Shown in pieces: positions 3,175 to 61,968 of a stretch of DNA of 64,000 nucleotides. The first letter of the stretch is position 1. Each line of letters starts with the position of its first letter. Origin of the DNA: Utricularia gibba (taxonomy: Eukaryota > Streptophyta > Magnoliopsida > Lamiales > Lentibulariaceae). The notes under the pieces are model-generated. The model was not told where the DNA came from, did no database searches, and saw only the letters and a program-made list of their open reading frames with translations. A program made the position numbers and the translations under genes. Where the stretch lies: assembly GCA_002189035.1 (NCBI GenBank), contig NEEC01000002.1, positions 6,471,001 to 6,535,000 on the forward strand, given 5' to 3'.

Positions 3175-4892
3175 TTACACTGGTATAACATCAATTTTCG
3201 ACGAGTCTTCGCATCCCAACACAATGCCCTCTATACTGGCTGGAAGGATAAATTTGGTCCACTGGCATCCGGTTGAGAAGGATTCGGATGGAGGAACGAT
3301 CATCAGGACATTCTCATTACGCTGTACCACACCCATAACGCTCACACTGCTACCTTCTTTGATGTACCTAATTAATGGGGTGGGGCTGGGGTTACTAAGA
3401 AACCAAAAAATGGCACAGAAAGACATTTGCAGCATGTGGAACAGCCATCCAGCTTGTGCAGAGGATAATGTGGTGCATCTTACCCTTCTTTGAGTCGCAT
3501 AGTGCGGTCATCACTTGAGAGGCCACGTTGTCCTAACCATCTGATTAATTCAGGGGACATGTCGTTATTAGAAGGGTTAATGTCAACAACCACAGTTTCA
3601 TCAACATAAGGAGTCACCCTTGCACCACACCCAGCCTTGACCAACGCCCTTAACCCAGACTGGAAGTCAGAAATGTAGAAGTCGACCACATGCCTCTGGG
3701 ATAGTGAAGAATGAAAATTTTGGATCAAGGACAAGCCAGCATATGCTACTGTTACTACTATAGCAACAAGTGAGCAACTCACCTCCAAGGTTCGAAGGCC
3801 CCAAGTGAAGCGGCGATGAGTAGGATTAGCTGCCTTGGAATCCCATCCACGGTATTCATATAAACTTGTTGATGTATAAACACATCGAGGAACCTTTTGG
3901 AATGATGATTCAAGAGGTACGTTTCCACAGGTAACAACCTTGAAAATTCCAAACCAAGAGCTATCAAGGAACACTTTCAAATGCAACAAAATCTCAGTGA
4001 CACGTTAAAAAAGAGCATACCCCCGAAACTTTGACAAACTGGCCATCTTTTGCTGATCGTAATTCTGTATCTGGATAGCTTGCTATGAAATCACTGATAG
4101 CCCTCCGTCCCCAGAAACTATTCCATGTAAATACTGCAAGCACTGCAGCAAATAAGATAACAACCACAACAAGAAGAATGGGATTGCGAACCGCAGCAAG
4201 GATGAAACCACCAGCAATGAAACCCATGACAAAGAGAAGAATGATTGCCCAAAGAATCAACTTTGGGAAACTCTTGCGAAATGAATACTCATCGTCCAGG
4301 CTGAGGTGTGTCACAGCCTGGTTGTTCAATATAGAAGCATTGTGGATCTTCAGTGAAGACTTTGATTCCAATGGACCAGATGCCTTCCGTTGAGCTCCTG
4401 AAGAATTCAGCGGCCCAGATGTAATAGGCCCTGAGGTAATAGACCGGTGGTAGGCAAAACAGGAGGAAGAGGTCCAGAATTCTGGCGAGAAGTAACGGTG
4501 CCTCCTCCCTGAGGACCTGATAATTTTTTCATTGGTTCACCATGTTTGTTTAGTGGTCCAGAATTTGTCTTCTTCATAGAAGCAGATCCAGGAATGCTTC
4601 CAGTAGAGGCAGAAGCACGACTCACAGAATTCAGTTGGCCTGAATGGCTAGTTGCTCCACCAAAAGAGCCAGTCCTTGAAGGGGCATTGTTAATAGGACC
4701 AGATTTTCGAGACCTGGTACTATCCGTAGGAATATCGAACATTTTACCAAGTTCCCCAGATTTCTTGATATCACCTCCAGTATAAGGCATGGCAACCGAG
4801 CTTATGATTGGAGCCTTCTCTTTTGGCTGCTCTGGCCGGCCCGATACATAAAGGCCATTGCTCAGTTGATGAGATGGAAATCGTGAACCCAT
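3175..4892 (-). CDS. Plant membrane protein of the At1g16860 family (frame broken by one missing base)
   Basis: The protein matches the plant-specific uncharacterised membrane protein family typified by At1g16860. It begins M-G-S-R-F-P-S-H-Q at 4892 (an in-frame Met lies four codons upstream) and has a Gly/Ser/Pro-rich N-terminal half with repeated SGP motifs. Two adjacent hydrophobic segments follow (around ILWAIILLFVMGF and ILLVVVVILFAAV), then a conserved C-terminal domain ending in IDVIPV. Exons are 4892-4021, 3938-3783, 3695-3484 and 3367-3175, all with GT-AG borders. The exons sum to 1433 bases. One base is missing at 4440/4441, within the SGP-rich stretch, and adding it gives 477 codons, the family size. 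As written the frame would stop at 4407. Function is unknown in the family. Confidence 0.88.
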
Positions 4893-4907
4893 GTTTCCAG
4901 CCAAACC

Positions 4908-6170
4908 ACTAAGTAATACCAGACACTTGATTAGTAACCAACGTAAAGAAGACCAGCAGCTTGTCCTCGGACTACGTGCTCATTGGTATGGTTATCTCTC
5001 TTCCACTGGGTTCTTTACCTAGAACACCATCGTCAATCATGAGAAGCTAAAATCCTCTTACAAATTTTATCACTACTAGAAAGGGAGAAAAGGAAGAATA
5101 TGGCATGAAAATACCGGAAACAAAATGGGTTAATGCCAGCTACTTTCCCAAATCACGGAATTAATGCCTAACTCCTTTACGTGACCCGCATACACAAATG
5201 CCCAATCTAGGAAAAAACCATGTGAAAAAATGCCTATCCATCAAAAGTAGCAGAATTTCAAGAACTCAAAACAATTCCAACAACCTAAGTGGCGAACTGT
5301 CAGACTAAGCCGCCATTTATAGCCTAAGACAAAAAGAAACCAATGAGAGATCACTCAAATGCTCGCAATCTATGTATAAATGTAAATCAGAAACGTCCGA
5401 CGAAAACCCATGTCAAAACCCCAGATCTGAGAGGAAATAAACATGACTCAGTCATCGGTACCGACAAGACGACGACCAGAACAGATACTACTGTCAGTAG
5501 TGACAGGAATCACAGCACTAATCAATGTAAACACTAGAAACACGTGAAAACCAAATTCCCAGTACGAAGTCTAAACGACGACTTCTCAGATCCAAAAACA
5601 CCCCCAGCCAAAGACAACGGATCGGGCATAGAGAAACTCGATAATTCAAAATCAAGCTCTAGTCAATGCTTCCAGATGCGAAGAAATCAAGAATCCCATA
5701 AACCAAAAAAAAAAAAAAGAATCCTGTAAAACCCCAACGCTCCAAAAGTAGAAACTAGTAGAACTAAAAACCCCCCATTGACTGACTTCGAGAATATTCC
5801 ACACACCCAGAAACCATCCCACAAAATGCCCGCTACACCCATTGCAATCACAACTCATCAGCACAAAGGATCACAGAATCCCCCCTAAAAACACAAGAAA
5901 AGAAACACCATTCTCCCCAGAAAAGCAACAAAAGTAGAAGAAACAAACCTGAACAGAAGCAGCAGAAGAAGAAGAGGAAAGTGGGAGAGACATGTGGAAT
6001 CAGGTGGTTGGAAAGCGTTAGGCCTGAAGCGTAGAGATGGAAGGAATATAGGAAATGGGGGAGTAGGACTCGGGAGGCGTCCGCAGTTACCTCAAGTGCA
6101 AAATAACAAACACCTCATCTGCTCCCTCTGTTCCTCTATCAGTTCCTCTCTTCCCTCCGCAGCTGCCGAG
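4908..6170 (-). other. 5' UTR with a roughly 1-kb leader intron, upstream of the At1g16860-like gene
   Basis: A CT-rich leader ends at 5949 with donor CAG|GTTTGT, and an acceptor CTTAG lies at 4909, 16 bases before the start codon. This suggests a 5' UTR intron of about 1040 bases (5948-4909), common in plant housekeeping genes. The leader and core promoter would lie around 5950-6170, just before a sharp change to AT-rich sequence. This is inference from splice signals without transcript evidence. Confidence 0.5.
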
Positions 6171-6229
6171 ATCACGTGAAATTACACTTTTGCCCATCTC
6201 TCTCCACACCCAAAGAACTTTTCATTTTC

Positions 6230-7948: not shown

Positions 7949-10102
7949 TCACAACGCCTTACCAAGCATGATACATTCCAAGAACTTTAGAGCCCCTGGG
8001 AAATGTTTCATCCAGGGGTTCATCTTGGCACGTCTCAGTATGACATGGGAGCCTTCATTTGGGTGGCATCCATCAATTTTCATGTGTTTAAACAGGGAAA
8101 TGATAGCTGAGAACTTTCCAGTCTTGAGCATAGCCTTAAGTAATGTGTTGTAAATGTAAATATCAGGAAGGATTCCATTCTCCCGCATTTGATCTCGGAA
8201 ATAAAGAGCATCTAAGATCTTGCCTTGCTTGCAGAGGCTGTAAATATAGCAACCATAGGTGCTAGCATCAGGAATTACATTCCTGGAGAACATTTCCCTT
8301 AAAAGTTTATATACGAGCATACTGTTGTCTTTTTGTGTAGCAGCACGGATTAATATATTATATGAAGCAGTATCGGGTGAAACTCCAACCTCCTTGAGAC
8401 GGTTGAACAACTCTTTGGCAAGTCCAAGGTGCTGGTTCTTGCAGAGACCAGCAAGGAGGGTGTTGAGGGTTACAGTGTTAGGTTGAGGACCATCAACCAC
8501 CATGGATTCCACAAGCTGTAAGCAATCCTTGATTTTTCCAGCAGCACAATAGTACTGAATCAAACATGTGGCACTTACAACATCAAGCCTTATTCCCTCA
8601 TATCCCATCCGCCTCAAAATGCACCTCACCAAAGCTGAATCTGCATGTTTGCATGCAACAGACAGAATGGTGTTGAAGGAGAACAAATCAGGCCCATTGG
8701 TACAACATTTTATATGGTTCAGCACTTTAAGAGCATCACCAACATTCCTTTCCCTGCAAAGCCCTTTCAGATATGTGTTGAAGGATACAGTGGTAGGCCT
8801 CAAGCCATTCTCCAGCATAATTTTCATAATGGGCAAAGCTTCTCTCGAACTACCACTGTTGCATGCAGAATGTAAATATATGTTGTATACAGCTTCATCC
8901 AGGGTGTATCCCCGTGAAATAATATGATCCAGAAACCTAGCAGCAGTATCCACTTGACCCCTCTTGAGCAACTCTCCACTCAAAGCAGCATAAGTATACT
9001 TATCACATACCAAGCCCTTCACATCAATAACATGAAGAAGATTGCCAATTTCTTCTACCCTACCTTGACGACAAAGTTCACGAATCACAATATTATATGT
9101 AATCAAGTCGGGCTCACATCCATTATTTTCCATGGTTTCAAGAAGTTGAAGGGCCTGATCAATTTGCGCATCATCACACAGAAGCTTAATGACATTAGTG
9201 TAAGTAATAAGATTAGGCGTGAATCCAACACTCTCCATTGCATCAAGCACATGAAAAACTTCATCCCACATCTTCTTTTTTCCAAGAACATAGACCAATG
9301 CAGTGTACGAGTAAATCGAGAGCATTAAACCCTTCTTTTCTAACAACCCAAAAAATGCAAAAACTTCATAACGCTGTCCACCCTTAGACATAGCCCATAA
9401 AATAGGATTGTAAATAAAGGTACTAGCTGAAAATCCACTGTCCAAGAGTACCATAAACAAGTAATATGCCTCTCGTATCATCCCACATTTACACAATGCT
9501 TGGATAACAACACTTACATCATGTTGGCTTGGATAGATGCTGGTGCTCAGCATCATTTCAATCACCGACACAGCATTCAAAAAACTCCCGGCTTCCAACA
9601 GTGCCTTGAGAATCATTTCAAGTTCTCTGTATGTTGGTAAAAAAACGTTCTTTATCATTTCCTCCAAAACTAAAACTGCATCATTCCAGCCACCAACAGC
9701 GATAAATCCATTCAACAGAATTTGGAAAGTAAGCCTATCTGGTCTTGGCACGGATTCTTTCATTTTTAAATAGAGCTCATGTAAACCATCAACGGTTACA
9801 TTTGCCGAGTTAAGATAGCACATAGTCATGTAGTTAAAATCATGAACACGACATTTACCAGGATAGCACCTGTGCAATGTGTTTAGAGTCTCATGTGCTT
9901 TCCTTGTGTTATTTGAGGTCACATCTCTGCGAAATTTATCCCGCAACTCTTTGTAGCAAGGGAAGTTCGCCGAAGCGCAATCATCAGTTGAAAAGTCAGA
10001 ATCTTGAATAGCAGCCGCGCACCACGAAGCACGCAAGCTCACTAGGCGGAAGGGAAGCCGCAATCTCCGCGCTGATAAGACATACAAACTGCAATACCGC
10101 AT
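7949..10102 (-). CDS. Pentatricopeptide repeat protein (P class), probably organellar
   Basis: This is an intronless 717-residue frame made of roughly 15 consecutive 35-residue P-type PPR motifs, for example segments starting TYTNVIKLLC, TYNIVIRELC, TLNTLLAGLC and IYNTLLKAML. The first 40 residues are rich in Arg, Ser and Leu (MRYCSLYVLSARRLRLPFRL), as expected for a mitochondrial or plastid targeting peptide. There is no E, DYW or SMR domain after the last repeat, so RNA stabilisation, processing or translation is more likely than editing. PPR proteins bind organellar RNA with about one motif per base. I cannot name the ortholog or the RNA target. The frame is intact. Confidence 0.92.
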   Translation of the reverse strand: MRYCSLYVLSARRLRLPFRLVSLRASWCAAAIQDSDFSTDDCASANFPCYKELRDKFRRDVTSNNTRKAHETLNTLHRCYPGKCRVHDFNYMTMCYLNSANVTVDGLHELYLKMKESVPRPDRLTFQILLNGFIAVGGWNDAVLVLEEMIKNVFLPTYRELEMILKALLEAGSFLNAVSVIEMMLSTSIYPSQHDVSVVIQALCKCGMIREAYYLFMVLLDSGFSASTFIYNPILWAMSKGGQRYEVFAFFGLLEKKGLMLSIYSYTALVYVLGKKKMWDEVFHVLDAMESVGFTPNLITYTNVIKLLCDDAQIDQALQLLETMENNGCEPDLITYNIVIRELCRQGRVEEIGNLLHVIDVKGLVCDKYTYAALSGELLKRGQVDTAARFLDHIISRGYTLDEAVYNIYLHSACNSGSSREALPIMKIMLENGLRPTTVSFNTYLKGLCRERNVGDALKVLNHIKCCTNGPDLFSFNTILSVACKHADSALVRCILRRMGYEGIRLDVVSATCLIQYYCAAGKIKDCLQLVESMVVDGPQPNTVTLNTLLAGLCKNQHLGLAKELFNRLKEVGVSPDTASYNILIRAATQKDNSMLVYKLLREMFSRNVIPDASTYGCYIYSLCKQGKILDALYFRDQMRENGILPDIYIYNTLLKAMLKTGKFSAIISLFKHMKIDGCHPNEGSHVILRRAKMNPWMKHFPGALKFLECIMLGKAL

Positions 10103-12435: not shown

Positions 12436-14793
12436 CTATGAGCTTGCCTGGATTTGGATGGGATGATTATGAATCCTTTGATTTCGTCGTTGCTGGTGAT
12501 CCCGATTGCTCGTCTGCTGTGCCGGAGGTTGTTGGGAGTAACCCGATCGCCATCTCAGGCACTCCATCAGAAGAGAGTTTATGGTGATGGTGACGCCGTA
12601 CCCGGAGAGGGATGAGAGCAGCACAGCCAAAATAGCGTTCATGTTGAACTGGAGGAGCAATTTTGCAGTTGGGAAACACAGAAGGGATGAAGGGAGAAAA
12701 AAGAAGGAGGCTTACCATGTTATAGAAGATGTGAGCAAACAAGATCACTGCTGCAAATTGGAAAGAAGCGTAAGCCCATATGTAGCTCCTGCTCACTGCC
12801 AAGCATCACAGGAACTGTTCATCTTCTTTGAAGATTCAGCTTATGTGTATGATCAGGTACAAAGGAAGCATGTTTTACCCATGGTTGATGCGATCATCGA
12901 TGATATAAACCCGAGAGCAAACGAAAATGGCACCGTGATGATGAGAGCACGGACTCTCATTCTGAAAAACTATCAAGGGATAATTCAGAGTAAGAGATAG
13001 GAGAATCCAACCCCTGATCATATTTTCACTTGTAGACTGAGCCAAGGGGGACATGCCACAGACAAATGTATCTTGCTTTCACTACTTTTCACTGCTCAAG
13101 ATCTATTGGTGAATATGGTTAAAGAATAGGAGAAGGACAGAGGAAGGATTCACTACCAGAAGCTGCTCGAGGAAGCCGAAATATGCAAGTATGCTGACTA
13201 CGACAAGAACAGGGACATCCTGCCAAAACCTGCCAAGAGATGAAGTAGCTATGTAACTACAGAGCAAGTCTTCCTACTGATTCAATTATATTAGTTGACT
13301 GAGAGATGTTAAGAGCTTGCCTGAAGTAGCCTCTCCTTTCCTCACTTTGTTGCTGTGCAATGAGCGGTCTTGGAATATGAGTAGGTCGATTTTGCACTCT
13401 CAGCAATGTTACAGAAAGGTTTTGAACTTCCTGCTTGCAGACATCACACGTTTTGTTGCCTTTAATGCTAAACCACTTGATTGCGCAATCTTTGTGGGCA
13501 AGGGCCATCTCCCCCTTGCAACTGCACTCCATTTTCAGCGTTTCTCCCCTTCATTAAGCTCAACTAAGCAAATCCTGCAAACTGCTTCTTCTTCAGGAAT
13601 GTCTTCCCCAGCATCATCTAATAGGATGTAGAAGTCAAGCGAAAAGTAGAACACCCAACTTGGAGCCGATCACAGTTACTCAAATGTATACCAGAATGGG
13701 GCTCAGGTGGAACGCCCGTGGGTGAATTTTCCTCTATGGTTGGCCTATGCAATGATATAACACGCATCAGGGCTCCAGAAGAGTTAGCCCTGCCCAGGCT
13801 TCTGTCGTTCACTGGAACCGATAACGAGCGCTTCATGCGTGTGCTAACCTCATCCTGCAGCAGAAACTGAATTTCATCCAGGGTACAGAGAGAACACAGA
13901 ACAGGGCATGAGATACACTTGGAAGAGATCATTCTCACCGTCTTAGTTTGATGGTCTAACTGATGATACGAAGGCAAGGGCTTATGATCAGCATTTCCCA
14001 TTGGTGTCACTGGTAAGGAACGCGATGACTTAGAGAAGAAGACTCGGTTCAGTGGGAAGGACCTAGAAGTTGAAGGCTGATCTAGAGAGGGCACTTCTGT
14101 GACAATGGAAATCATTTCCTCAGATTCCAAACTCGAGCTTCTGTCCCTGAAATTCTTCTGGTGAATCAAGTTCTTCACAGATGACTTGAATTTTGCTGAA
14201 CTGGGCCTCGGCGGCAACCCTGATCTGGTAGAAGCTGGACTTGGAGTATAAGATCTTATGCCATCATGAAGTTCCCGGTCCAAAGTTTTCATCGGTATTT
14301 CCAATGAAGAAAGATTTGGTTTTCTTGAGTGAATCAACGCAGATTCAGCCTCTTCCTTTTCTGTCTTCTGAAATTCATTTCAAATCATCAAAACAAGCTC
14401 ATCATTCCATAACCAACAAACCGTAAGTAACGCAAGCACAAACACTGCTTTCATTTTGAAGATCCCAAATAGCTTCCTTGATAGAAACCACCCAAGGTTT
14501 CTACTTTCAACCACCCACCAATCCAATCCTAAATTCCCAACACACCCCACAAATTTCTCAAGCAAATAGTGCTACAAACAAGCAGTGAGACGAACTAATT
14601 GACACAAAACCGAAAACTGGATCATGGCTGAAAATATGAGCAACCCAGAAAGTAAAGACAACTCAAAAGAGAAATAAAAGGGAAAGCAAACAAAAAAGAC
14701 CTGATCCTGTAGAAGCTGGATGCTACCGCAATCCCCGTTCTGATCGTAAGTTTTATGAAGCGTTGCTGAAGAGGAGGCATCGTTGTCCGCCAT
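12436..14793 (-). CDS. RINGv (MARCH-type) membrane E3 ubiquitin ligase (frame broken by one missing base)
   Basis: Eight exons: 14793-14701, 14367-13939, 13854-13680, 13617-13321, 13229-13154 (end may be 13157), 12969-12879, 12795-12716 and 12648-12436. The product has a low-complexity N-terminal half, then a C4HC3 RING-variant finger (CRIC, ECSCKG, HKDC, CDVC) and four hydrophobic segments ([52 protein letters not shown]). This is the plant MARCH-like layout, so ubiquitin transfer at an endomembrane is inferred. One base is missing in a run of four C at 13546-13549 (+ strand), inside the finger. With it the CDS is 485 codons. The intron after 13321 starts with GC (AG|GCAAGC), and this donor is the one that keeps frame. 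Confidence 0.88.
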
Positions 14794-14829: not shown

Positions 14830-16035
14830 CTACAGAACACAAGAATTTGAACTTTTCAAGTGTGAAAAACTGACTGACGATTCAGCGCAAAGAAACCACC
14901 TTTTTTTTCCAAGACTAGTCTTTTTTTGTCTAATCAATTTCAACAATGCATCCATCATCTCTGCCACCCAAGCAAACCCCATATTTATGCCGATTCATTC
15001 TTCTATCTCCCCTGCTTTATGCAGATTACGTTAATCTTTCCATCTTATTCTCTACAGCATTATGACCAATAACATGCTTCATAAATGAAGAACAAAAATC
15101 TTAAATGCATTCCTATTTTTACTTTTTTAATTTTAAAATAAAAATTAGATTTTTTTAAAAAAATATTTATTATTTTTCAAAATTTCAGTAGAAAAAAAAG
15201 TTCAGCAACATCTTCTTTTTCTTATTCCCACTTTCCACAAAAAGCTTACCCTATTTGCAATTACATGACTAGGAAATTAAACATCACCCACTTGTGTTAT
15301 TTTTTTCAAAAAATTTGAAAAAAATTTTAGATTTTGAATTGGATCCCAGAATCGAAAAGATAATCGCTCAACATAGTCGATTCAAAACGAACTTCAAAAC
15401 AATATGTTGTTAATTACATGAATCATCATGTTTAAAAAATATTGATCCTTTTTAGATTTAAAAATTCGAAAAATAATAAAATTCCGATTAAACTATTTTA
15501 TTTCGTAAATCCAAGATTCATTGTGAAATTGACAGATGTCCAACTTGATGTGGCAAGTGGGCCATAGTTGTGAGGTGTCACAAGTGGACTCGAATATCAC
15601 CGCCACGGGCTAATTGTTTGAAGTTTCCTGTTTAATTCATTATTTTTTTCCTTCCAATTTATCAGCTTTTCCGCATTTTTAATATATTTTTTAAAAGGTG
15701 TTCTGTTTTTATTTAATATGTATTAATTAATTTTTTTGTTGAATTAATTAATGTAAAAAAAAATTTAATTCAGAGTTGCACTGTAGGCCCAATATTGAGT
15801 TAGCGGGTTTGGGCCGATTAGGCGGAGCCCAGCCCATTAATAGAATATCTGGTTTCCCATTACGGAGTTTCCAGTTTCCCTCCGCTTCTTAATTCTCATT
15901 TCTCACTGACTGTTTTTCAGTCCCTGACAAGTTTCAAAAGCTTGAGGGGTTTCTGTGGAACTTCGTCTGGCCTTTTTTTTTTCTTTAGTGGCGGTAGGGG
16001 TCTGGTCTGCGTTGCTCTGAACACAGGTTTCAGAA
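14830..16035. other. Intergenic region between divergent genes (RINGv and gamma-tubulin)
   Basis: The region holds both promoters. Bases 15050-15780 are AT-rich with no gene. A GGCCCA/GGGCC-rich segment at 15785-15835 (for example TAGGCCCA and AGCCCAGCCCA) resembles site II elements common in plant cell-cycle and housekeeping promoters and lies about 200-250 bases upstream of the gamma-tubulin start. Confidence 0.45.
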
Positions 16036-25985: not shown

Positions 25986-25989
25986 CTTC

Positions 25990-38331: not shown

Positions 38332-38417
38332 CCGACCTTAGCTCAGTTGGTAGAGCGGAGGACTGTAGTTGGACAACTGAAATCCTTAGGTCGCTGGTTC
38401 GAATCCGGCAGGTCGGA
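38332..38417 (+). tRNA. tRNA-Tyr (GTA), intron-containing
   Basis: The acceptor stem CCGACCT (38332-38338) pairs with AGGTCGG (38410-38416), followed by discriminator A. The A box TAGCTCAGTTGG and the B box GGTTCGAATCC are intact. The anticodon stem GAGGA pairs with TCCTT, and the anticodon is GTA at 38365-38367. Removing a 13-base intron (38369-38381) directly after position 37 restores a seven-base loop. Nuclear plant tRNA-Tyr genes are known to carry such an intron. It starts 108 bases from the CP29 start, on the opposite strand. Confidence 0.96.
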
Positions 38418-47418: not shown

Positions 47419-49510
47419 TTAGGACAAGGCATCCTCAGTGCATGCTCCCCCAGGAGATGGAGACACAGAGTGGTCTCTTGATTCATCCTCGGCCACCGGC
47501 GACTGTTCCACTCCGACCTCCTCAATCATCCTCACAACTTCGCCCATCGTCGGCCGGTTTTCTGGGTTCGCCGCCACGCAGGCCATTGCAACGTGCAGCA
47601 TCGAGACGAGCTCTTCTTCGATGTTGGTGAACCGCAGCAGCTCTCGATCAAAGACCTCCCCTGTCCACTCATCCCTCACCATGGATCGCACCCAACCGGG
47701 TAGATCCTCATGTTCTGAGCAAGCTTTTCCGGTGAGGACTTCAAGCAACACTACACCGAAGCTGTAAACGTCTGCCCTTTGTGATAGCTTCTTGATCTCT
47801 GCCTGCTCTGGTGCTCTGTATCCCCTCAATCTTTCTATGGCGTGAGTGGGGTTGAGGAGGAGGGCGAGCCCGAAATCGGATATTCGAGCGGTACCGTTCT
47901 TGTCGAGGAGAATGTTGGAGGATTTCACGTTGCCGTGAGGGATTCCTGAGCCTGAATACTCCTGGTGGATCTTTGCTAGACCGCGGGATATGCCAAGAAT
48001 CATGCTGATTCTGGTTGTCCAGTCTAGTGGGATTCTTCCTGTTCCTCTGGAACCTGAATATATCAACAAAAACTGTTAAGTTTAGTTTTCATGTACAGGA
48101 TGTTGGTGTTTATTGGTTCCACTCACTTTGAAGAAGCGAATGCAAGCTTCCATTGGGGAGATAGTCGTAGATCAGCAGCTTTTCTTCTCTGGTGTAGTAA
48201 AAAGCTCTGAACTTGACAACATTCGGGTGCCTCAGGTTCCCGATGATTTCCATGTACTGTTCAAAGTCTTTTCTCGAACAGGGATTCGAATCTTTTAGCC
48301 GTTTCACCGCCACGGTATCGCCGTCGTGGAGGACTGCTCGGTACACCGTTCCTAAGCTTCCTTTTCCCAACATCTCAGCCGATGCACGGAGGAGATCCTC
48401 CAATTCAAATGCTGTTGTTCTGTCAAAGAACACGAGCTTCCCTTTCTCTGTTGCATTCGCCATTGGGACGTTCCCTGCCGCGGCGATAACCCGTCTTCCG
48501 CCGCCGGAGGAAGTGCTTCTCTTCCCGCTTTCAGTCTCCGCCACCGCTGAATTCGTGTCGCAGAACAATCTCCGGCAACAGCAAGTGAATGTGACAAACA
48601 CCAGAAGAAAAAGGAGAACAGAGTTCACCACAATGATAGTAACTACTACTCTGTTTCTTAGTTTTCTGTGATTGGTGTAAGGAGAGTGTTGAACTGGAGG
48701 GGGAGAAATAGAATTCGAGGATAGGGTTTCAGAGGATGCCGGCGCCGGCGCCGGCGTATTGTTCTTGAAAACAGAGCAACTGGGAAATGGGTTGTTTCCA
48801 CAGAGCCCTTTATTGCCGACAAAGCTACCTCTACCGTATCGGAAAATCAAGCGCCATGGAAGCGGCCCTGACAATTCATTGTTCGATAAGTTCAGATACC
48901 GAAGATGTGGAAGATACTCGATTGAGCTCGGAATGCCCCCTGAAATTTCATTGTTTTGCAATTGGAGAGTTATCAAGTTCTTCAGTGTAGCAATCTCCGT
49001 CGGAATCGGTCCCCGGAGATTGTTATTCGACAAATCAATAAGAAGCAGATGTTGCAGAGAGGATATCTCCGGCGGGACCTGCCCAGAGAAGTCGTTCCCA
49101 GAGAGATAAATGAGCTTCAGATTTAAGCAATTGATGATCGGAAAAAGGGTGCCGTTCAGACGATTGCCACGGAGATCAAGGAATCGGAGCTGGCTAAGAG
49201 AGGAGATAGCGCTGATTGGGCCGCGCAGGTTGAGCGCAGGGAGACTCAAACCAGTGACACGGCGGTTGGTACATTCCACCCCCACCCAATAAGCAGAGCA
49301 GGCGGCGGTAACCGCCGTCCAGTTGGAGGTGAGGACGCCGTGGGGGTCCGCCTGAGAACGGAAAAGAGAAAGGGCAGCGGTGTCATCAGCCTCGGAAAGT
49401 AAACGGCGGTGATTTATCAGAGGTGAAGTAACGAGGAACAAAAAGCACCTGAACCAGAAGCCTTCCATGACGAAGACCCCAAGCACATGAATATTTCTAA
49501 AGCCCTTCAT
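47419..49510 (-). CDS. PXC1: LRR receptor-like kinase PXC1 (LRR-RLK subfamily III)
   Basis: Two exons (49510-48127 and 48053-47419) encode 672 residues, or 658 from the Met at 49468. In order there are a signal peptide, an LRRNT-like region ([19 protein letters not shown]), about five LRRs ([42 protein letters not shown] and so on), a Ser/Pro-rich juxtamembrane region, one transmembrane helix ([19 protein letters not shown]) and a kinase domain. The kinase has [36 protein letters not shown] and YRAPEQ. HGN replaces HRD at the catalytic loop, as usual in subfamily III. The match to PXC1, a regulator of secondary wall formation in xylem fibres, extends through [10 protein letters not shown] and the tail VEQSPV. 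The frame is intact. Confidence 0.93.
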
Positions 49511-52500
49511 TTTCCAATTGAATATTAATATTTCAAAATATTTTAAAGCTTAAATTCTGAAAAGAATAAAAAGAATTTCAAACCGGTCAAAAGAGTGAAA
49601 CCATTAAAAGAAGGCCAAAAAAAGCGTTGGACTTATTGGCAGGGGAAGAAAAGAGCACCTCGGTGTAATTTCCTTTCTCCTTTTTAATAAACAATTTAGA
49701 GGTGTTTGTTTGACAAGATGATTTAACGGTTTAAATATTCGTGTTTTGATAACAATATATGTTTCGTATACTAGTTAAAATAACATACGAGTGCTTTATA
49801 AAACTACTATAAACTAAAATAATGTTTTGGAAAATTTTTGAAAACTATTTTTACTTTTCGAAATTATTTTAGAAAAATAGAAATAATCAATTTTTTATTT
49901 TTTTAAAAATAGTTTTAATAATATAATTTTAAAATTATTTTTGATAAAATTAATTTTACAATTAAAAATATTTTAGAACAAAATTCTTTTTATTTTTGAA
50001 AAATATAAATAGATTTTAAAAATTTTGTAAGACACTAATTAAATATTTGAAAACCCATCTTTTAGTTAATTTTGTTAAACAATTCAATTTAAGAAATATT
50101 TATTTTAAACACATTTACCAAATATAATATTATATATTATTAATTATGTTATCCTACAAAAATGATCTTACAATAACTATTTAAGTAAATTTGACATAAT
50201 CATGATTAAATCTATTTATATTAAGGTTTACAATATTTACTATTATCCTTAGTAGGTTATTAATTTGCTAAATAAAGGTGTGCTTCTAGTGGTCCGGACG
50301 TGATTGCCTCATTCGGTCACACCTTCTAGATAATTCACATGCGCTTTCTTGGTAAATCTGGAACAGTCAAAATGTGAATTTATTTATCCTCATAATATTT
50401 TCTTTTTTACCCACTGAGAAAAAAAAAATGTTTAAAAAAAGTAGTAGTGATTGATTGATTATAAAGGTTCGTACTTGTATTTGCAAGATTCCACTGTAAA
50501 AAGCAGGCTTTTTTACCCTATAACTTTACTTCACCTACGAAGTTCTCTGTCCCTATGTTACCATGTTACCTGTCACGGTAAAAAAATAAATGCCAAATTC
50601 CAAACACATATTTGTCTTCTTATTAAAAAAAACAGAACCAGCTGATTAATTCATTTTTTATTTTTTTCCAAAAAAATATTTTAGAGATATTATTAATATC
50701 ATAATTTAAAAACTTTAATGCCAGGCTATCATCTTGTGCTCATTTTTCCTGATTTGTACATAAAGCTTTCACTTTATGTGACACCGAAGACTAACTCGTC
50801 TTGGAATTCATTGTGACTTTGTTCGAATAATTTTCGAATAAAAAATAAACCTTATTGTATGAAATTTACAATAGTAATCAAATGTCAAGATCCATACTTA
50901 TTTTATAGGATATTGTATATTTCGAACATCAAACTTTTATGATTTTACGTTTTACTGTTATAAATTTAAAAATTTCATATAAAATTACTCTATTTACTTA
51001 TGTTTCTTCTTTCGTTCGAAATTAATGTAAAATAATTTTAATATACTCTTAGACTTATATTAAAATAGTAATTAAATAGAAGAATTATTCTAATTTTGAT
51101 TTGAAATAGCGTTCACATGGGAAAAAATCAACCATATGATTTTTATACAAGTGCCCGGTCAACAATGGAAACCTGACGGAAAATTTAGATTTTTTTAAAA
51201 AATAACCACATAAAAAAAAAGAGAAGTTTCCATTGCCTATTCTCAAATGGGCCTGGATTTTGAAATTAAACACGTGGACGGCGTCCGTTGGGCCCAGCTA
51301 CATCGAACCGTACGAATTTGACGTGGTTTTTGCTGTCGCATTTTACATCCTTAATAAACAAAACTGTATTTTAAATTTAGAAGTAAAATTAATTAAATGG
51401 CAGTTTCGTACGGCAATGCCCACTTCAACGAAAAAAATGCATTTTATTATTATAATTCTATAATATTAGATTTGTTTTTATTCCTTAATACAGAAAGAAA
51501 AATGGGGCTCCAGGCATTCCAATTTAAATGAAATAAAAAATGCCATGATAATTGCGAACATTAGACGCTAAGTAGGACATCATAATTGTGCAATCCACAA
51601 TAAGTGTCATAATAATAGCACTTTACTCCATTCTATAATCACCATCTTCGCAATCCCCAATATTTAATACCCCATTCTATTTAAAAAAAACTCAAGATTA
51701 TCTTTTAATTTATAACTCCAATTTAATTATTATAATTATTCACGTCATAAAGAGTAATAAAATCATCATTCCTCACCATTTTTGGGCAATTCACAAAATT
51801 AGACATCGAATTGGCCTGCAAAATCAGTAGTTATTCAAAGTTATTTTTCTAAAAAAATGTACAAGCAAAAGTCATCACTTGAAATCAATATTTTAAATTT
51901 AGAATTTTAGATTTTTTTTTACGAAATTAGGATTTTGCTTTAAATGCGATATTTATTTTTTACAGTTCACCACCAGTAAAAAGAAATTTCCTATTGGGTG
52001 ATTTTGAAATTTGAATGCTATAAAAAATATACAATAAAAAAGTAATGTTTTGCATTTAATATTGTGCAGCAGTACTTGAGAAAAAAAAGTAATTTTTTAA
52101 TATTTTTATTTCTAGCTAATTGAGAGAAAAAGAAACCCAATAGCGATAGCACGTGCCCCCTCCAATTATTATTGTACACGCAATAGTATGTGTTTTTGAA
52201 ATAAATTATATTTATTAAAAAATATTTTGAAAATATATTTAAATCACCATCGACTTTTAATTAAAAATATTAGAAAGATTTATTATTTTAAAAAGCTAAA
52301 TAATTTCAAATATATATGAAAATCAATTCTAAAAAAATAAATTTCAAAAAAATCATTTTAATTTTGAGTATTACATATTAAATATTGTTTCTAAAATGGA
52401 CGGATTGTATAATGCTTAAAATGCATTAAAAGAATATTTAATATAATTAATTATTAATAAATACCGGCACGGATACCCCAAACGGCGCTTGTTAGGTGAA

Positions 52501-53394
52501 GTGGCTTTTTCATTTTCTTCGGTTATTTTTTATGTTACACATATGCCCTCGCTTTCTGAGGTGCATTTCCATTTTCACCCTTGGTTTCCGTTGATTCACG
52601 AAATGGCCACCAGGCTTTTCTCGTTCTTTTAATTATTCTTTATTTATTTATTTTCCAATTACTATATTTTTTATAAATATTTTATTTATAAATTTATGCA
52701 TTATTCATCTCCTAAAATTATTGTGTCTACACATAGTAAAGTAATATATCTAATGTCAACATCCATACTACCCATAATATAATAATGTTCGATTTGAACA
52801 TTTAACAAATGAGATTTTTATTATTATTCTATACAAAATTATGAGAATTTGTTTATTTAATGCATGTATTTTTTTTCGTTTGTAATTAATATAAGATATC
52901 ATCTCAACCTTTGATCTTATACCTAGCATTGAAACACTGAATTAAACCTTAAAAAATATTATATATTTATTTATTTATATTTATTAACTTTTAATATTCG
53001 AGAATCAGAAAAAGTGATGAAAAAATATTTCAAATTTAAATTGTGATCTTCGGAATGGTAAAGAAATCAATTTCAATTATTTAGTAATAAATGAAAAATG
53101 TTAATTAATTGGCACGGCAATAAAATTAGGTTGGGGTATTTATTATTAAATTTTAAGCAGGAATAAAAAAGGAGAATTGAAATCCGTCCACTTTTGAGTT
53201 TTTGTCCTTTTTAATTATTATTTTTCTCGTTGTTTCTTTTCTTGTAAGCTCCATTAATGGCGATTGGAGTGAACTGAAGCTCAACGCTCTTCGCATTTCC
53301 CATACCGAGATTTCAAGTCAAGGGTTCAGCAGCAAAACGCTTGGTGTTTCTGCTTCAAATCTGAGTTCCATTTCTGGGTCCATTTTCAGAAATA
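49511..53394. other. Long AT-rich intergenic region
   Basis: About 3.9 kb with only tiny open frames. The PXC1 promoter lies at the left end and the AHL leader at the right end (from about 53180). No transposon ends, tRNA or tandem repeat were found by eye. Confidence 0.45.
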
Positions 53395-55059
53395 ATGGAG
53401 GTGGATGATAGAGAAGCCACGGATTCTGGCTCATTAAGTGGTAACCCAGAGTTGGATTCATCCTCCACCGGCGGAGATTCCTTCGTCCGGGGAGACTCCG
53501 GGGTTCCTGGATCACTGAACATGAACATCTCCATGGAAATGAACGCGCCAGTGGCGGTGACGAACGCGCCCGCCGTTACCGCCGGCTGCGGAGTAATCGA
53601 CGGTGTTGTGGATATTGGTTCAGCTGAATTGCGCACCAGGGGACAGGGGACTCGGCAACGGGGAAGAAGAAGAGGGGGAGACCAAGAAAGTATGACGCGG
53701 AAGGGAATCTCATTCCGTCGTACATCAAAACATCTCCGGTGGGCTTTGTTTCACCGGCGGCGTTGTCTTATGGGATTCCGTCCGGCCAAAAGCGTGGCCG
53801 TGGTCGGCCGCCCGGTTCTGGTAACTGGCAAATTCTTGCCTCTTTGGGTAAGTTTACTTTAACATTCTCATTTCTTACATGTTTTTCTCCAAAAAAACCT
53901 GCCTTTAAAATCCTCTTCCATCCATCTTCCTGATTTCCAATGACCCGAGCTTCGGCTGTCCAAATCTGAGTGCAGTGTGACTCCTACACTCAAATCGGAA
54001 TTCGCCATTTATTTTCGCTTCCTGTAATCTTCTGGGATTTGACTTCATCCATTTCACATTCTCCCCTGTGGTTTGGCATTACATTTTGCGGCTTCTGCAG
54101 GGGATTTGTTCGTAAACTCAGGAGGAGGGAACTTCACTCCTCATGTGGTCACCGTGGAAGCAGGGGAGGTATTCCAAATGACAATTTCACTGTAGTTTTT
54201 CTGTAGTGATTCTCATCATTGTTCGAGTACATCAGTGAGAAATTTGCTTGTGATTCGGTTTGCTTTTCACCGCTGGTTTTCTGTGGATTCTTTTTCTCCT
54301 TGCTGCTAGCCCCATCATCTTTATGCACTCTCTCTGAGATTTGGTTGCAGGATGTTGCGGGGAAGATACTGACCTTTGCCCAGAAGGGGTATCAAGGGAT
54401 CTGTGTTCTCTCCGCCAATGGTCCGGTATCCAACGTCACTCTCCGGCAGCCAGGGGCTTCCGGTGGTCTGCTAACATATGAGGTCTGTGCCACTCCATAT
54501 TATAACCGTCGGAAGTGCTGTAAACCTGGTGAAAGTGAAACAAGCTTGACGAATGCAGGGGAGGTTTGAGATCTTGACTTTAACCGGATCCTACACCGTT
54601 TCCGAGACGTCCGGAATCAAGAGCCGCTCCGGAGGATTAAGCGTCTCGTTGGCTAGCTCCGATGGCCGTGTCATCGGCGGCGGAGTGGCTGGGATGCTCA
54701 CGGCAGCTAGCCCCATCCAGGCAAGAACTTCAACAATACCATGTTCCATCTTCATTCTTCTGATGAGATGCGTCCTGTGGCTCTAGATTGTGGTCGGAAG
54801 CTTCGTTCCAAACGGTTTCAAATTTCCTAAACGCAAGGCCCCCGCCGATCCGGGAGTATCTCCGGCAGCACCTCGTCCGATGGCTGCAGTCACCGCTGCA
54901 ACACCGATATCCCAAGCACCACCACAAAGCGGCGGCGGCACCATCCTTAACTTGTCAAATTCGGCTTCCGCTGACTGGAAAGGACCCGCTCCACATGCTC
55001 CAGTTCCCCATCATCAATCGCCGGACATCAACATTCCGATGCCGGCGGAGGACCAGTGA
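53395..55059 (+). CDS. AHL protein: two AT-hooks plus PPC/DUF296 domain (frame broken by one missing base)
   Basis: Five exons: 53395-53847, 54101-54168, 54351-54482, 54559-54720 and 54787-55059. An acidic Ser/Gly-rich start is followed by AT-hook 1 (KKKRGRPRKYD), AT-hook 2 (KRGRGRPPGSGNW) and a PPC/DUF296 domain (GGNFTPHVVTVEAGED, GICVLSANGPVSNVTLRQP, GRFEILTLTGSY, GGGVAGMLTAASPIQIVVGSF). These proteins bind AT-rich matrix-attachment DNA and form oligomers through PPC. One base is missing between about 53622 and 53655, before hook 1. With it the CDS is 363 codons. As written both hooks would be lost. The intron after 54720 has a GC donor (CAG|GCAAGA). Confidence 0.9.
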
Positions 55060-55643
55060 CTCCATCAACACGACTCAGCCGCAGTTGACTTCTCCCATGA
55101 GTTTCCTTCTTTAGGGCAATTACTGTTGTCCAGGTACATTAGGTACTCGATTAGGCTATTTCCAAACCCTAAATAACTAGCTTTCCCAAATTTAGGATGT
55201 GGATATACATTACACTGGTGGCATCAACTAATTTTAATTTTCAATATTACAAATAATGAAATATTTTGTTGGCACCTGTATTTTTTTAAAAAATTATTAT
55301 TGAATTATTTTAAATTACAAATCGTTCATAAAATAAATTAAAAAAATTGAATTACGATTACATTTTTTGTTAAATTTAAGACATTGATTAATAATATTTT
55401 TTACTTTGATTTTGAATTTTAATCTAGAAATAATTGAGGAGTAAAAACAAGTTATAAAGATGCAATAAATAATTTATTGTCCAATTAATTTTTATAATAT
55501 TTGTATTTTAATTTAAAAATTACGGATAATTGATTTATCCGGACGGGAGAGCAGAAGCCGTTGGTATATCCGCCAGAGGAGCGGGTGAGGGAAGGGAAGC
55601 AATTCTCACACACTCCAAGGTAGGGTAAGCGCAGGGCAGGGCA
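55060..55643. other. AT-rich spacer and PRXIIE promoter
   Basis: AT-rich to about 55530, then a GC-richer leader for PRXIIE. No gene is seen. Confidence 0.45.
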
Positions 55644-56315
55644 ATGGCGGCAGCTACAGCAACCACCGGTGCGTTCACTGCGGCAAGGTTTATCGGCTCA
55701 TCGTCGTCGAAGCTGAAGCCGGCGTTCGGTCATCTTTCATTCCGAGGGAATCTTGGAACCTCGTATCCGATGAGGATTTCTCGCATCGGGTGGGCTCGAT
55801 TCTCCACCGTTCCTAAGATCTCCGCGGTGATATCCGTCGGCGACAAGCTCCCGGACGGGACGCTATCCTACTTCGACGACGCCGACGAGCTGCAAACCGT
55901 CTCGATCTCTGAAATCACTGCGAACAAGAAGACCATTCTCTTCGCTGTCCCTGGCGCGTTTACCCCGACCTGTTCGCAGAAGCATCTCCCTGGGTTTGTC
56001 GAAAAGGCTGCGGATTTGAAGGGGAAAGGGGTCGACGCGATTGCTTGTATTTCGGTCAATGACGCCTTCGTGATGAAGGCGTGGAAGAAGGATTTGAAAA
56101 TTGGGGATGAGGTTTTGTTGTTGAGCGATGGGAATGGAGATTTCACAAAGGCGATTGGGTGCGAATTGGATTTGAGCGATAAGCCTGTTGGTCTGGGAGT
56201 GAGGTCTCGCAGGTACGCCATGCTTGTAGAAGATGGTGTTGTGAAGATCTTGAACTTGGAGGAAGGTGGCGCCTTTAATGTCAGCAGCGCTGAGGATCTG
56301 CTCAATGCCCTTTGA
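55644..56315 (+). CDS. PRXIIE: Type II peroxiredoxin, chloroplast (PRXIIE)
   Basis: This is an intact intronless frame of 223 residues. The first 60 residues are a Ser/Ala/Arg-rich transit peptide. The mature enzyme starts near [16 protein letters not shown]. The peroxidatic Cys is in [16 protein letters not shown] and the second Cys in [15 protein letters not shown], the spacing of atypical two-Cys type II peroxiredoxins. [14 protein letters not shown] is conserved. The enzyme reduces H2O2 and alkyl hydroperoxides in the stroma using glutaredoxin or thioredoxin. A 270-codon minus-strand frame across the gene is a shadow. Confidence 0.96.
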
Positions 56316-56575: not shown

Positions 56576-57888
56576 TCACCCCGACGGCCGGACATAGGAC
56601 AGAACGGTGTAAAACGTCTGTGCCACCGTCAGTGCCAGTAGAACAAACGCCGCCGCCGCCGAGATAAGCGACCACGGCGTGTCAAAATAGGTGTATTTGA
56701 AGGTCGCCCAGTGAACATTCCATTTGTTATGATAATAATCATGAACCTGGTTGAACAACTCCGACAGATAACTGGAATCACTGTCAAAAGACACGTCTTT
56801 CCCGAGATTATTGATGAAATCCGCGACATGGGAGTCTGTCCCGAAGTAATTATCCATGATGTTCTTGTCGCAGAGGTACTCCACATCTTTACCGGAGTTG
56901 ATCAGGCAATCGAGGAACGTGGCGTATGTCGTCATATGCTTAGAACACGCCCGCCGGCATTGCTCGTACGCCACGCAGTTATGTAGGAAGGCGCTCATGA
57001 AATCATCTAGTGATATTGTGGCCATGGAGATGACGCCGTGCCGGAAGCTTACCGCCAAGAAGCTGTCGTGCTCATTAGGCTTGAACTTGATTCCGGCCCG
57101 GCGGAGCTTGGTGATGCATTTGATGAGGCGAGTGTTGGGGAACCGAGCTCCATCTGGTTCTTCATAGCCGATGGGTATGAAACTTGATCGGAGAAGATCG
57201 AGTAGGTGTTGCGCCGCTGGGTTTTGGAAGTTTCCGATGAGTTCCTCCGGTCGTTGGAAGCCGATGTTGAAGAACATGAGCGCTAAGGTAGAGAGAGATT
57301 GGGATTCCCTAGCGGGGTTTCTGGTGAGATCATACAGACGCTGGAGTACGAAGAAAGGGACTTGGTTTTCAAGGTTGATGAAATCCCGGAGGAAGAAGGA
57401 GATGATCCATGAAACTGAAACCAGAGGATCATCGCGTTCGAAAGGAATAATCTCATTGAACTTTCTGAAAAACTCGATCAGGAAACACCCGTCAAGAACC
57501 AACATTTCAACGAATTCATCAGCTGTGTACTCAAAATGCGACGAATAACAACCTCGGGCCAATTCTTCCACGGTTCCAACAGAAGCCAACAAGTGCTCAA
57601 GTCCTATACCTCGGGTTTTCTCGATTCGCTTCAGAAGGCTTCCGAGGAACCTCCACTTGTGTTCCTCCACCATTTTCAGATGGGGGGCGCCGTGATGGTA
57701 CGGTCCGATGGAAATCACATGTGGCCCGTAGCCGCTGGGGTTGATCTCCGTGAGGCTCGGGGGACCCTGAAGATGGAGCATGTGCTCCGGCCGGCTGAGT
57801 TCCGAAGGATCCTGGGAGGATCGGCAATTTTCTGGAGCATCAGAGTTAATCTGTTGCTGATGGCTTGATCTGGGTCAGGGACACCCAT
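56576..57888 (-). CDS. DUF247 (UPF0481) membrane protein, frame broken by one missing base
   Basis: The gene is intronless. It starts at MGVPDPDQAISNRLTL (57888). The conserved DUF247 opening CSIFRVP, then PSLTEINPSGYGPHVISIGPYHHG, is split between two frames by one missing base in a five-base G run (+ strand) at 57759-57763. With it the CDS is 438 codons, a normal family length. Later blocks include EMLVLDGCFLIEFFR, DFINLENQVPFFVLQRLY, FMSAFLHNCVAYEQC and a C-terminal transmembrane helix (SLISAAAAFVLLALTVAQ). The biochemical role is unknown. DUF247 genes are large plant families and some act in self-incompatibility of grasses, but nothing here points to that. Confidence 0.9.
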
Positions 57889-58304
57889 TATTCTCGATGG
57901 ATATGACAGCAGAAGCTTTTGAACCAGTGAACGGGATAACAGGGAAAGATGGATGATGATGATGTCATTGGTGTGGTGAGTCAACAATGACAACTCAGAA
58001 ACACATGTTCATCCGCCAAGTTGAAATACTGGTAAAGAAAAAGACAAGAAGATTTATAATAGTTTCATCAAAGCATGCCTCAACGCAAAAGGGTTCTAGT
58101 GTTTTTACAGAATGGAAATCTCCATAATAAGTACATATATCAAGCTGCCATAGTGCAGTTCACAACTTCAACACAAGAAGTTTGAGAGTAGCTTGTCATT
58201 GTCATTACAGAGCCACAAGAACACTTCAATAGAACTCTAGCAAGACAAAAGGATACACCAATCCCATTGTAAGGAAAGCATATGAACTTCTGAATTCGGA
58301 ACAG
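57889..58304. other. DUF247 promoter and BUD31 3' UTR
   Basis: No gene is seen. DUF247 leader sequence lies near 57889-58000, including a GATGATGATGATG run at 57952-57964. The remainder is probably the BUD31 3' UTR. Confidence 0.4.
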
Positions 58305-58993: not shown

Positions 58994-59499
58994 ACTTTTC
59001 TACAGTGAAAAAAAATAACAATCTTGCTGTCAACGAACAGAAGGTTCAAAGGAATCACAATTGAATACTAGTCTTTGCTTTGAAAATAACCAGAAAAATG
59101 GCTTAAACCCAAGTCGAATGTCACGAAGGCTACAGCTAGGGGCTTTCAAGGACCAAAGTTTGTTCATGCAGCCATACCCCCCAATGAAATTGCTAGGACA
59201 GAGAAATAGAGCCAATTAACGCCTACGAAATCCTAGCAATTACGGATTTATCACGAAACAGAATAGCCAAAAGAAACATAAATTAAAAATGAACGACGAG
59301 TGGGGAAATCGCTAGTAGAAGGCGATACAGTGACGCAAAATCCGGAAATCAGACTTACCGAGAAGGAAGAGCAAGGAGCAACAGAATTTGAAAACAGAAG
59401 GTGAGAAGAAATCTGATTTTCAAATTCCACGTAGTGAGACGAACCCTAATTGCAATTGAATTTCACCGTTCCTCGTGTGGGAAATCCCCGGAAAGTCTA

Positions 59500-60010: not shown

Positions 60011-60278
60011 CCTACCTGTTTTATCGGTTTAGCACGCGCGCTCGGAGATTGCGACGGAGGGATATGGAGTAACGGGCAGATATAGAACCGTACACGACGC
60101 CGTTAACCGCACTGTCAACTGCCTGTTTGATATTTTTCTTTGTTCAACAACCATCGCGGGAGAAAAATGGCGAAGGATGAGGTTAAATTCAAAACACTTT
60201 CTCTACGTTTTGTTTGTGGACGGGATATTTATACATTTTGGTGAAGCCCCAGAACCAAATTTCTCTCGATTATCAACC

Positions 60279-61968
60279 ATGATTCTTTCCAGAACCCCAA
60301 CCCAAATCCCACTCCTCAATCCCCTGGTACGCATGGCGGCATCTGATAACAAGAGAAGAAAAGAAGGAACATGGGTTCGCGACAAGTCAGCCGATGAAGT
60401 TCGGGTATCTCTTGTCCGAGCTCTTGTTGTCCAAACTTCGTTGCTGTCACAGCGCTGTAAGAAATCCTCTGTTGGTTATTAACATTCTGAGGTATAATGG
60501 ACTGATTTTTGATGAAATTGTGTTCTGATTATGCTGCTAGTTTTCACGGAGTTGGTTAATGAAACTGCGAAGTATGTGTTTCCCAATAGACGATTTGAGA
60601 CCAGGACTTTGGAGGAAGCTTTGATGTCTGGTACTTCCCTCTTTAGGTATTATGTTTATGTCGTCTAACTTCGTAGAAAATCTTACTTGGTTCTCGTGTT
60701 TTTGAAGTCCCGGATCTTGAAACCGTGGAGTTCAAGGTTCTCAGTAGGAAGGATGGCTATGAGATAAGAGAAGTTAAGGTACCCTCTTTTTTTGTCTACA
60801 ACTGAATCCGTAGTTTGTGTAACTTTTATACGTGCTTTGTGGGCATATTGGTTGGCTTGTATAGCCTTACGTTGTTGCTGAGACAACAATGCCTTCCGAG
60901 TATGGTTTTGACTTTGCTGGTGCATCTCAGTCGTTCAATGTTTTGGCTGGGTACTTGTTTGGTAAGGTAAATTGACTCAGATTATTCATGCCGAAAAACA
61001 CCTGCTGCTCTTTGCATAGTTGCAAGATAATGCCTCCTGGAATTGATCAGAATACTAGAGACGTGCAAATGGAGATGACAACTCCTGTTTTCACTCGTAG
61101 AGGTGAAGTTGAAGGGGAGAAGATGGACATGACAACACCTGTGATAACTAAAAAGGTCCCTCTTCTAGAGTGAGATGCTCTGTGGCCGTCTGAACGTTTT
61201 TAATTCAAGCCTCTTGTCATTTCCAAGTTATTGACCTTTTCAATGTGTGGAAATGCATGATTTCATTGTTGTGAGACATATTAGATACCGAACTTTTGAA
61301 AAAATACTACCTTAACATGAATTTTATCAGTAGAGTTGACATGACATTTTGAAAAAAATATAATTTTGTTTTTATGGCTGCATATTTCTGATAAGATTCA
61401 TATTCTTTTTAATTTAGGTAGATCAAGAAAAGTGGAAGATGTCTTTTGTGATGCCTTCAAAGTACGGTGCAGACTTACCATTACCTAAGGATTCATCGGT
61501 GACAATCAAGCAGGTGCCACAAAGGGTCATGGCAGTGGCTGTTTTTTCAGGTTAATGAAGATGAAATCTGAAATCACTTACCAAGGAGTGCAGGGAGAGT
61601 TTTTAGCTTTCCATGTTATTGTACAATCCGGTTATTGCTGTTGGACCCTTGATCTATTATTTTCTCACCTTTTTCTTTTCTCGTTTATTGTCAACCAGGA
61701 TTTGTCACCGATGAAGAAGTAAAGAACCGTGAATCAGCTCTACGTGACTTGATAAATGAGGACGTGGTATTCCGTGTTAAAGAGGGCGCCTCCTTGGAAG
61801 TTGCCCAGGTTTGTAACTTAAAGGAAGTTTGGAAAGATCATCATTTTTTGTATTCCTAACGGTCTTACTGGCGTTCACTTTATTTTGGATGCAGTATAAC
61901 CCCCCTTTACACTTCCATTCAGTCGGCGTAATGAAATTGCATTGGAAGTTGAAAGGAAGCAGGACTAG
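60279..61968 (+). CDS. SOUL-family haem-binding protein, probably plastid (last exon out of frame by one base)
   Basis: Eight exons: 60279-60456, 60541-60630, 60708-60778, 60865-60966, 61051-61155, 61418-61550, 61699-61808 and 61895-61968. SOUL/HBP domain features are clear: [26 protein letters not shown], the repeated MEMTTPV and MDMTTPV blocks, [20 protein letters not shown] and [15 protein letters not shown]. Such proteins bind haem or tetrapyrroles. One base is missing in a T run at 61906-61908. With it the C-terminus reads in the family pattern to a stop at 61966 and the CDS is 288 codons. As written the frame runs to 62059. An upstream in-frame Met at 60177 exists, and the start at 60279 is chosen by N-terminal transit-like composition. 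Confidence 0.88.

What the first reader, a model, noticed from the sequence alone, without database searches (positions are those of the whole stretch)
3175..61968. Recurrent one-base losses in conserved genes across the whole window
Eight recognisable genes (At1g16860-like, RINGv, gamma-tubulin, GAUT, aspartic protease, AHL, DUF247, SOUL) each need one extra base (two in the protease) to read the conserved protein. All lesions have the same sign. Several fall in runs of 3-5 identical bases. After adding the base, exon sums become divisible by three and lengths match the families (for example 477, 484, 647, 362, 437 and 287 residues). About a dozen other genes are intact. A systematic assembly deletion error is the simplest reading. 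If real, this would be a striking burst of gene loss in housekeeping genes.
Basis: partly seen in the sequence, partly recalled or inferred. Interest (0 to 1): 0.8.

Follow-up and report, generated by a model that had tools for sequence, protein, structure and literature searches.

The report
One-base deletion errors in assembly
Several plant genes in this stretch look broken by one missing base each, but the same kind of break turns up elsewhere in the genome assembly and even between two assembled copies of the same place, so it is almost certainly a sequencing and assembly error, not gene loss.

Summary
The frame breaks are in the sequence, but they are very probably not biology. RINGv and SOUL have profile or structure support. 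The first protease break lies near 39,644, not 39,924. The gamma-tubulin, AHL and second protease breaks rest on frame reading only.

Three results favour an artefact. (1) Breaks occur elsewhere: 22 robust ones in 49 kb of GRAS genes, 16 of them -1 and 2 +1; HSP70 and BAHD genes agree in sign. The window's density matches the GRAS rate but exceeds the coarser HSP70/BAHD one. (2) Four stretches assembled twice differ by 31 gaps (26 of one base) and 8 substitutions over 13.5 kb; one GRAS domain is open in one copy and broken in the other. (3) Many breaks sit by homopolymers, and codons downstream are still constrained. The assembly resembles the PacBio-only Utricularia gibba genome (inferred). 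No reads were available.

The parts
3178..4892 (-). At1g16860-like membrane protein gene, four exons; frame lost by one base near 4441
   Evidence: 22 homologues aligned frame-aware: 20 of 22 put -1 at 4441, 2 of 22 write +2 at 4423; all 22 agree on the three introns
13260..14379 (-). RINGv-domain gene; frame lost near 13546, beside a run of four C
   Evidence: downstream frame matches PF12906 positions 12-47; both frames joined by X match 1-47
16021..18924 (+). gamma-tubulin gene, the only one found in this assembly; suspected frame loss near 18811 in the C-terminal tail
   Evidence: tubulin matches; with a 184-residue piece as query no other place exceeds 50% identity; the tail lies beyond the part aligned to solved structures, so this break is read from frames and recall
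23186..25988 (-). GAUT4-like galacturonosyltransferase gene; frame lost near 23330 (CCCCAAAA on the gene strand) and probably also near 25692-25707
   Evidence: 15 of 15 homologues for 23330-23333; 12 of 15 for 25692-25707; Glyco_transf_8 split over two frames
39349..41934 (+). aspartic protease gene; frame lost in exon 1 near 39644 (CGGGG), a second suspected loss near 41549-41638
   Evidence: three-frame reading; TAXi_N match of one exon; motif consensus recalled; second loss not verified
53392..55111 (+). AHL (AT-hook, PCC domain) gene; frame lost between the start ATG and the AT-hook, 53622-53655
   Evidence: ORFs; AT_hook match just under its cut-off, PCC match under its cut-off and over the cut-off in the genome search
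56585..57990 (-). DUF247 gene; frame lost near 57758 in a run of five C on the gene strand
   Evidence: 21 of 21 homologues; PF03140 match 5-401 of 401
60976..61990 (+). SOUL haem-binding family gene; frame lost near 61906 at a run of six C
   Evidence: PF04832 matches (one of the two below its cut-off); both frames joined by X align to haem-binding protein 1 at E 0.0027
7949..10102 (-). PPR gene, one open frame of 717 residues, a within-window control
   Evidence: ten PPR_2 stretches in one frame
47422..49549 (-). LRR receptor-like kinase gene in two long open frames; no break tested here
   Evidence: LRR and kinase profiles
55629..56312 (+). peroxiredoxin gene, one open frame, a within-window control
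   Evidence: Redoxin profile 2-148 of 148

Best explanation
The breaks are residual one-base deletion errors in the consensus of a long-read-only genome assembly. Many fall in or next to short homopolymers, where the consensus caller settles on one base too few. The genes themselves are probably intact in the plant. Shown here: the breaks exist, are mostly of one sign, are enriched at runs, occur in unrelated families on many contigs, and differ between two assembled copies of one locus. Inferred: that the data are PacBio reads without short-read polishing, and that the species is Utricularia gibba.
For: (a) Elsewhere in the genome: among 42 GRAS loci, 15 carry 22 robust frame breaks in 49,246 aligned bases (16 are -1, 2 are +1, 2 are +2, 2 are -2). 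In HSP70 genes 9 of 9 adjoining frame switches are -1 mod 3 (6 after dropping two with offset 83 and one duplicate locus); in BAHD genes 6 of 7 (-1 mod 3 could also be +2).
(b) Stretches assembled twice: C316 against C412, C16 against C451, and two stretches of C414 against C422 give 31 gap events (26 of one base) and 8 substitutions over 13,530 aligned columns. The GRAS domain near the end of C414 (L056) lacks bases in three one-base and one five-base gaps; on C422 (L031) it is open. At C316/C412 the open frame is 412 against 615 residues.
(c) Homopolymers: 5 of 16 GRAS -1 events (31%) lie by a run of 5 or more against 1.7% of background (paralogues, so not all independent); in the window 6 of 9 lie by a run of 4 or more against 13%. 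Paralogues L037, L038, L039 and L067 switch frame between profile positions 135 and 150, with runs of five or six C at L037, L038 and L067.
(d) Selection still visible: downstream of the break in L067 the differences from its intact paralogue at codon positions 1, 2, 3 are 12, 13, 66; in L036 17, 14, 74; in L039 27, 21, 77.
(e) The window's density matches the GRAS rate.
(f) Published precedent: a PacBio bacterial genome held 561 single-base deletions after three rounds of Quiver, when Illumina reads were aligned (PMC4888979, one passage).
Against: No reads of the same plant were available, so no single site is proved wrong. Three of nine window sites (At1g16860-like, gamma-tubulin tail, GAUT 5') have no run of 4 or more, and many of the gaps between twice-assembled copies are at runs of 1 to 3. 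The window exceeds the HSP70/BAHD table rate (3.6 expected in 20 kb, P of 9 or more 0.012). One HSP70 break is shared by both assembled copies of its locus (C241 and C304), as a real mutation would be, although a repeated context error would do the same. Some GRAS loci (L058, L061, L065, L066) are divergent or hold stops and may be true pseudogenes or hold introns. Raw PacBio reads have more insertions than deletions (PMC7671305, passages), so the deletion bias must arise at the consensus step.
Confidence: 0.94

Rival explanations
1. Real, recent one-base deletions: the plant has a mutational bias towards small deletions and many genes are in early decay.
For: The breaks are mostly of one sign and found in several families, as a strong deletion bias would also give; small genomes in this plant family have been linked to deletion (recalled). 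One HSP70 break is shared by two assembled copies. The window exceeds the coarse HSP70/BAHD rate.
Against: Assembled copies of the same stretch differ by 31 gaps but only 8 substitutions, unlike real alleles, which differ more by substitutions (recalled). Downstream codons are still constrained. The only gamma-tubulin gene found is affected, if that break is real.
Confidence: 0.03
2. Ordinary pseudogenes: redundant duplicates left by whole-genome duplication are being lost one by one.
For: Some paralogues exist, for example an 84% identical At1g16860-like copy on C304; a few GRAS loci look truly degraded (L065).
Against: In the three window genes aligned in full (At1g16860-like, DUF247, GAUT) no in-frame stop was met and the damage is one or two frame losses. 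Gamma-tubulin is the only copy found, so redundancy cannot excuse it.
Confidence: 0.02
3. Programmed frameshifting or unusual splicing restores the proteins from the sequence as written.
For: Several GRAS paralogues switch frame at the same conserved site.
Against: The breaks lie in unrelated genes and no common signal was seen by eye; other GRAS paralogues (L014, L016) read straight through the same region; the copy differences between contigs need no such mechanism.
Confidence: 0.003

Closest known systems
Residual single-base deletion errors of PacBio consensus sequence
   Same: one base missing, homopolymer-enriched, spread over the assembly, turning intact genes into apparent frameshifts (PMC4888979, one passage seen: 561 such deletions in a Quiver-polished bacterial genome)
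   Different: the platform is inferred here and no reads were available; several sites here have no run of 4 or more
Pseudogenes after whole-genome duplication (fractionation)
   Same: frame breaks in genes that may have paralogues
   Different: mostly one sign, few stops or larger indels, coding constraint persists downstream, and a gene with no second copy found is included

Membership tests
PacBio-type residual consensus deletion errors | excess of one-base deletions over insertions | tested here: met
   GRAS 16 of -1 against 2 of +1 among 22 robust events; HSP70 9 of 9 and BAHD 6 of 7 are -1 mod 3
PacBio-type residual consensus deletion errors | association with homopolymer runs | tested here: met
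   GRAS: mean longest run near the 16 -1 events 3.8 against 2.55, reached by 0 of 10,000 random draws; window: 6 of 9 with a run of 4 or more against 13%, permutation p about 0.001. Gaps between twice-assembled copies are only partly at runs
PacBio-type residual consensus deletion errors | present genome-wide, not confined to a locus | tested here: met
   breaks on many contigs in GRAS, HSP70 and BAHD genes
PacBio-type residual consensus deletion errors | two assemblies of one locus disagree by single-base gaps but hardly by substitutions | tested here: met
   31 gap events (26 of one base) and 8 substitutions in four stretches
PacBio-type residual consensus deletion errors | reads of the same individual contradict the consensus | not testable with these tools
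   no reads held
PacBio-type residual consensus deletion errors | assembly made from PacBio continuous long reads without short-read polishing | tested here: inconclusive
   genome is 100.09 Mb in 516 contigs; a review gives U. gibba as PacBio 88x, HGAP, 581 contigs, N50 3.4 Mb (PMC5793159, passages); the genome paper itself is not held
Pseudogenes | relaxed constraint on the coding sequence | tested here: not met
   third-position differences exceed those at positions 1 and 2 downstream of breaks in L036, L037, L038, L039, L060, L062, L064 and L067; tested on GRAS genes, not on the window genes
Pseudogenes | mixed indels and in-frame stops | tested here: not met
   the three window genes aligned in full met no in-frame stop; two GRAS loci (L058, L065) do hold stops

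The most novel reading that the evidence does not exclude
A part of the breaks is real: this compact plant genome suffers a strong, ongoing bias to one-base deletions in homopolymers, and many conserved genes, including its only gamma-tubulin gene, segregate or fix frame losses tolerated by redundancy, dispensable tails or transcript slippage.
Probability: 0.03. Interest if true: 0.85.

Novelty: not a real feature. Interest (0 to 1): 0.12.

Why it matters
It matters as a warning. At one detected frame break per 2.2 kb of GRAS coding sequence, or one per 5 to 6 kb by the coarser HSP70/BAHD tables, gene models, gene-loss claims and pseudogene counts drawn from this assembly would be wrong for many genes unless it is polished with short or high-accuracy reads. 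The twice-assembled contigs give a cheap internal way to measure such errors without any reads.

Tried and rejected
Same-species proteins as an independent check: in three protein searches the highest identities among the best 120 listed were 67%, 82% and 78%, so no independent sequence of this plant was seen. A twice-assembled copy of the window itself: only one 2.3 kb piece was searched; it has no second near-identical copy, only an 84% paralogue on C304 that could not be fetched. Programmed frameshifting was considered because several GRAS genes break at one site; rejected because paralogues L014 and L016 read through it. Gamma-tubulin tail and protease were checked against solved structures or profiles, without coverage of the break itself. 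Literature on frame errors in this very assembly: the listings (15 of 19 shown; 10 of 60; 10 of 1,454; 12 of 58) showed none recognisable from title and abstract; the original genome paper is not held.

Rows dropped: the GRAS set is 42 loci (30 and 12); matches on C416, C177 and C321 were not fetched. Of the 42, 22 show no event, 2 (L022, L030) only a weak one, 3 (L036, L061, L066) have events that fail the flank-score cut of 60, and 15 carry the 22 robust events. L022/L023 and L031/L056 are the same locus twice. In HSP70 two pairs with offset 83 may be introns, and C304/C241 are one locus. Only neighbouring matches at most 45 bases apart were classed. The tubulin and AHL loci fetched (L001-L008, L068-L081) were not put through the frame test, nor were the DUF247 loci other than for the copy comparison.
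Full report
What was checked. The window is bases 6,471,001-6,535,000 of contig C451 (6,822,880 bases) of a genome of 100,091,633 bases in 516 contigs. The best-scoring homologues of its DUF247 and At1g16860-like proteins are mostly from Lamiales, and Genlisea aurea is listed for both. Size and contig number resemble the PacBio assembly of Utricularia gibba (581 contigs, N50 3.4 Mb, 88x, HGAP; passages of PMC5793159). That identity is inference; no call names the genome.

The observation. I wrote a protein-to-DNA aligner that allows introns and frame changes. The RINGv domain is split between two frames: the downstream one alone matches profile positions 12-47, and joined to the upstream one by an X it matches 1-47. 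The SOUL gene aligns through its break to haem-binding protein 1 only weakly (E 0.0027). The AHL break follows from ORFs. The first protease break belongs in exon 1 near 39644, not at 39924 (motif recalled). The gamma-tubulin break lies in a C-terminal tail beyond the aligned part of solved structures and the second protease break depends on splice sites; both are plausible and unproved. Within-window controls stand: a 717-residue PPR frame and a peroxiredoxin frame are open.

Is the window special? Probably not, but this is the weaker part. GRAS genes are mostly without introns (recalled), so breaks show plainly. Of 42 GRAS loci, 22 show no event, 15 carry 22 robust breaks, and the other 5 have only weak events or events below the cut. 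The 22 are 16 of -1, 2 of +1, 2 of +2 and 2 of -2, in 49,246 aligned bases. From the match tables alone, HSP70 genes show 9 adjoining frame switches, all -1 mod 3 (6 after removing two with offset 83 and one duplicated locus), and BAHD genes 6 of 7. At the GRAS rate, 20 kb of coding sequence (my own estimate for the recognised genes, from no call) should hold about nine breaks, and the window holds nine or ten. At the HSP70/BAHD table rate only 3.6 would be expected, and nine or more has P 0.012. That table method sees only breaks that leave two detectable pieces, so it undercounts; and the window was picked by a reader who noticed breaks. A moderately error-rich window is not excluded.

The strongest test. 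Some small contigs repeat parts of large ones, so the assembly contains the same place twice. Four such stretches were held. C316 against C412: 1 substitution and 10 gap events, all missing from C316. C16 against C451: 1 substitution and 1 gap. C414 against C422, two stretches: 1 substitution with 6 one-base gaps, and 5 substitutions with 14 gap events. Together 31 gap events, 26 of one base, and 8 substitutions over 13,530 aligned columns. True alleles differ the other way round (recalled). In the last pair the GRAS domain is open on C422 (L031) and broken on C414 (L056) by three one-base gaps and one five-base gap, so the same domain is open or broken according to which contig one reads. C422 in turn lacks one base further upstream, so neither copy is free of differences.

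Sequence context and selection. Near GRAS -1 events a homopolymer of 5 or more occurs in 5 of 16 cases (31%) against 1.7% of background positions; in the window a run of 4 or more occurs at 6 of 9 against 13%. Paralogues L037, L038, L039 and L067 switch frame between GRAS profile positions 135 and 150, with runs of five or six C printed at L037, L038 and L067 (the DELLA naming of L037-L039 is recalled). Beyond the breaks, differences from intact paralogues are concentrated at third codon positions (L067: 12, 13, 66; L036: 17, 14, 74; L039: 27, 21, 77), so the reading frame is still under selection, or was until very recently.

Mechanism. Continuous long reads carry many indels; raw PacBio reads in fact have more insertions than deletions (PMC7671305, passages), so the one-sided loss must come from the consensus step. 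[quoted passage not shown] Another paper lists indel errors of a PacBio haploid assembly and mended them by phasing (PMC5632298, passages). That the present assembly was made from PacBio reads and never polished with short reads is inferred.

Against this reading. No reads were available. One HSP70 break is shared by both copies of a twice-assembled locus. Three of nine window sites lack runs of 4 or more, many copy-to-copy gaps sit at short runs, and a few GRAS loci look truly degraded. I judge that none of this outweighs the copy comparison.

Verdict.

Noticed in passing
G000 contigs C316/C412, C422/C414, C16/C451, C241/C304: Small contigs repeat parts of large contigs: the first three pairs were aligned and are nearly identical; C241/C304, like C159/C142, is judged from equal scores only.
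   Followed up: partly
G000 contigs C1, C2, C409, C505, C507: Contig lengths are multiples of 2,500 bases (8,500,000; 6,192,500; 2,492,500; 3,452,500; 642,500), which suggests that contigs were cut at chosen points.
   Followed up: no
   Followed up: yes
window 28946-29106 and 38332-38417: A U1 spliceosomal RNA gene (112 bits) and a tRNA gene, both matching over their full model length.
   Followed up: no
G000:C304:2235549-2237462 and C241:16598-18511: An HSP70 gene whose frame switch has the same offset in both assembled copies; either a repeated context error or a real mutation.
   Followed up: no
G000:C304:1601147-1603144: An 84% identical second copy of the At1g16860-like gene, a good comparison once its letters can be fetched; whether it is intact was not seen.
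   Followed up: no
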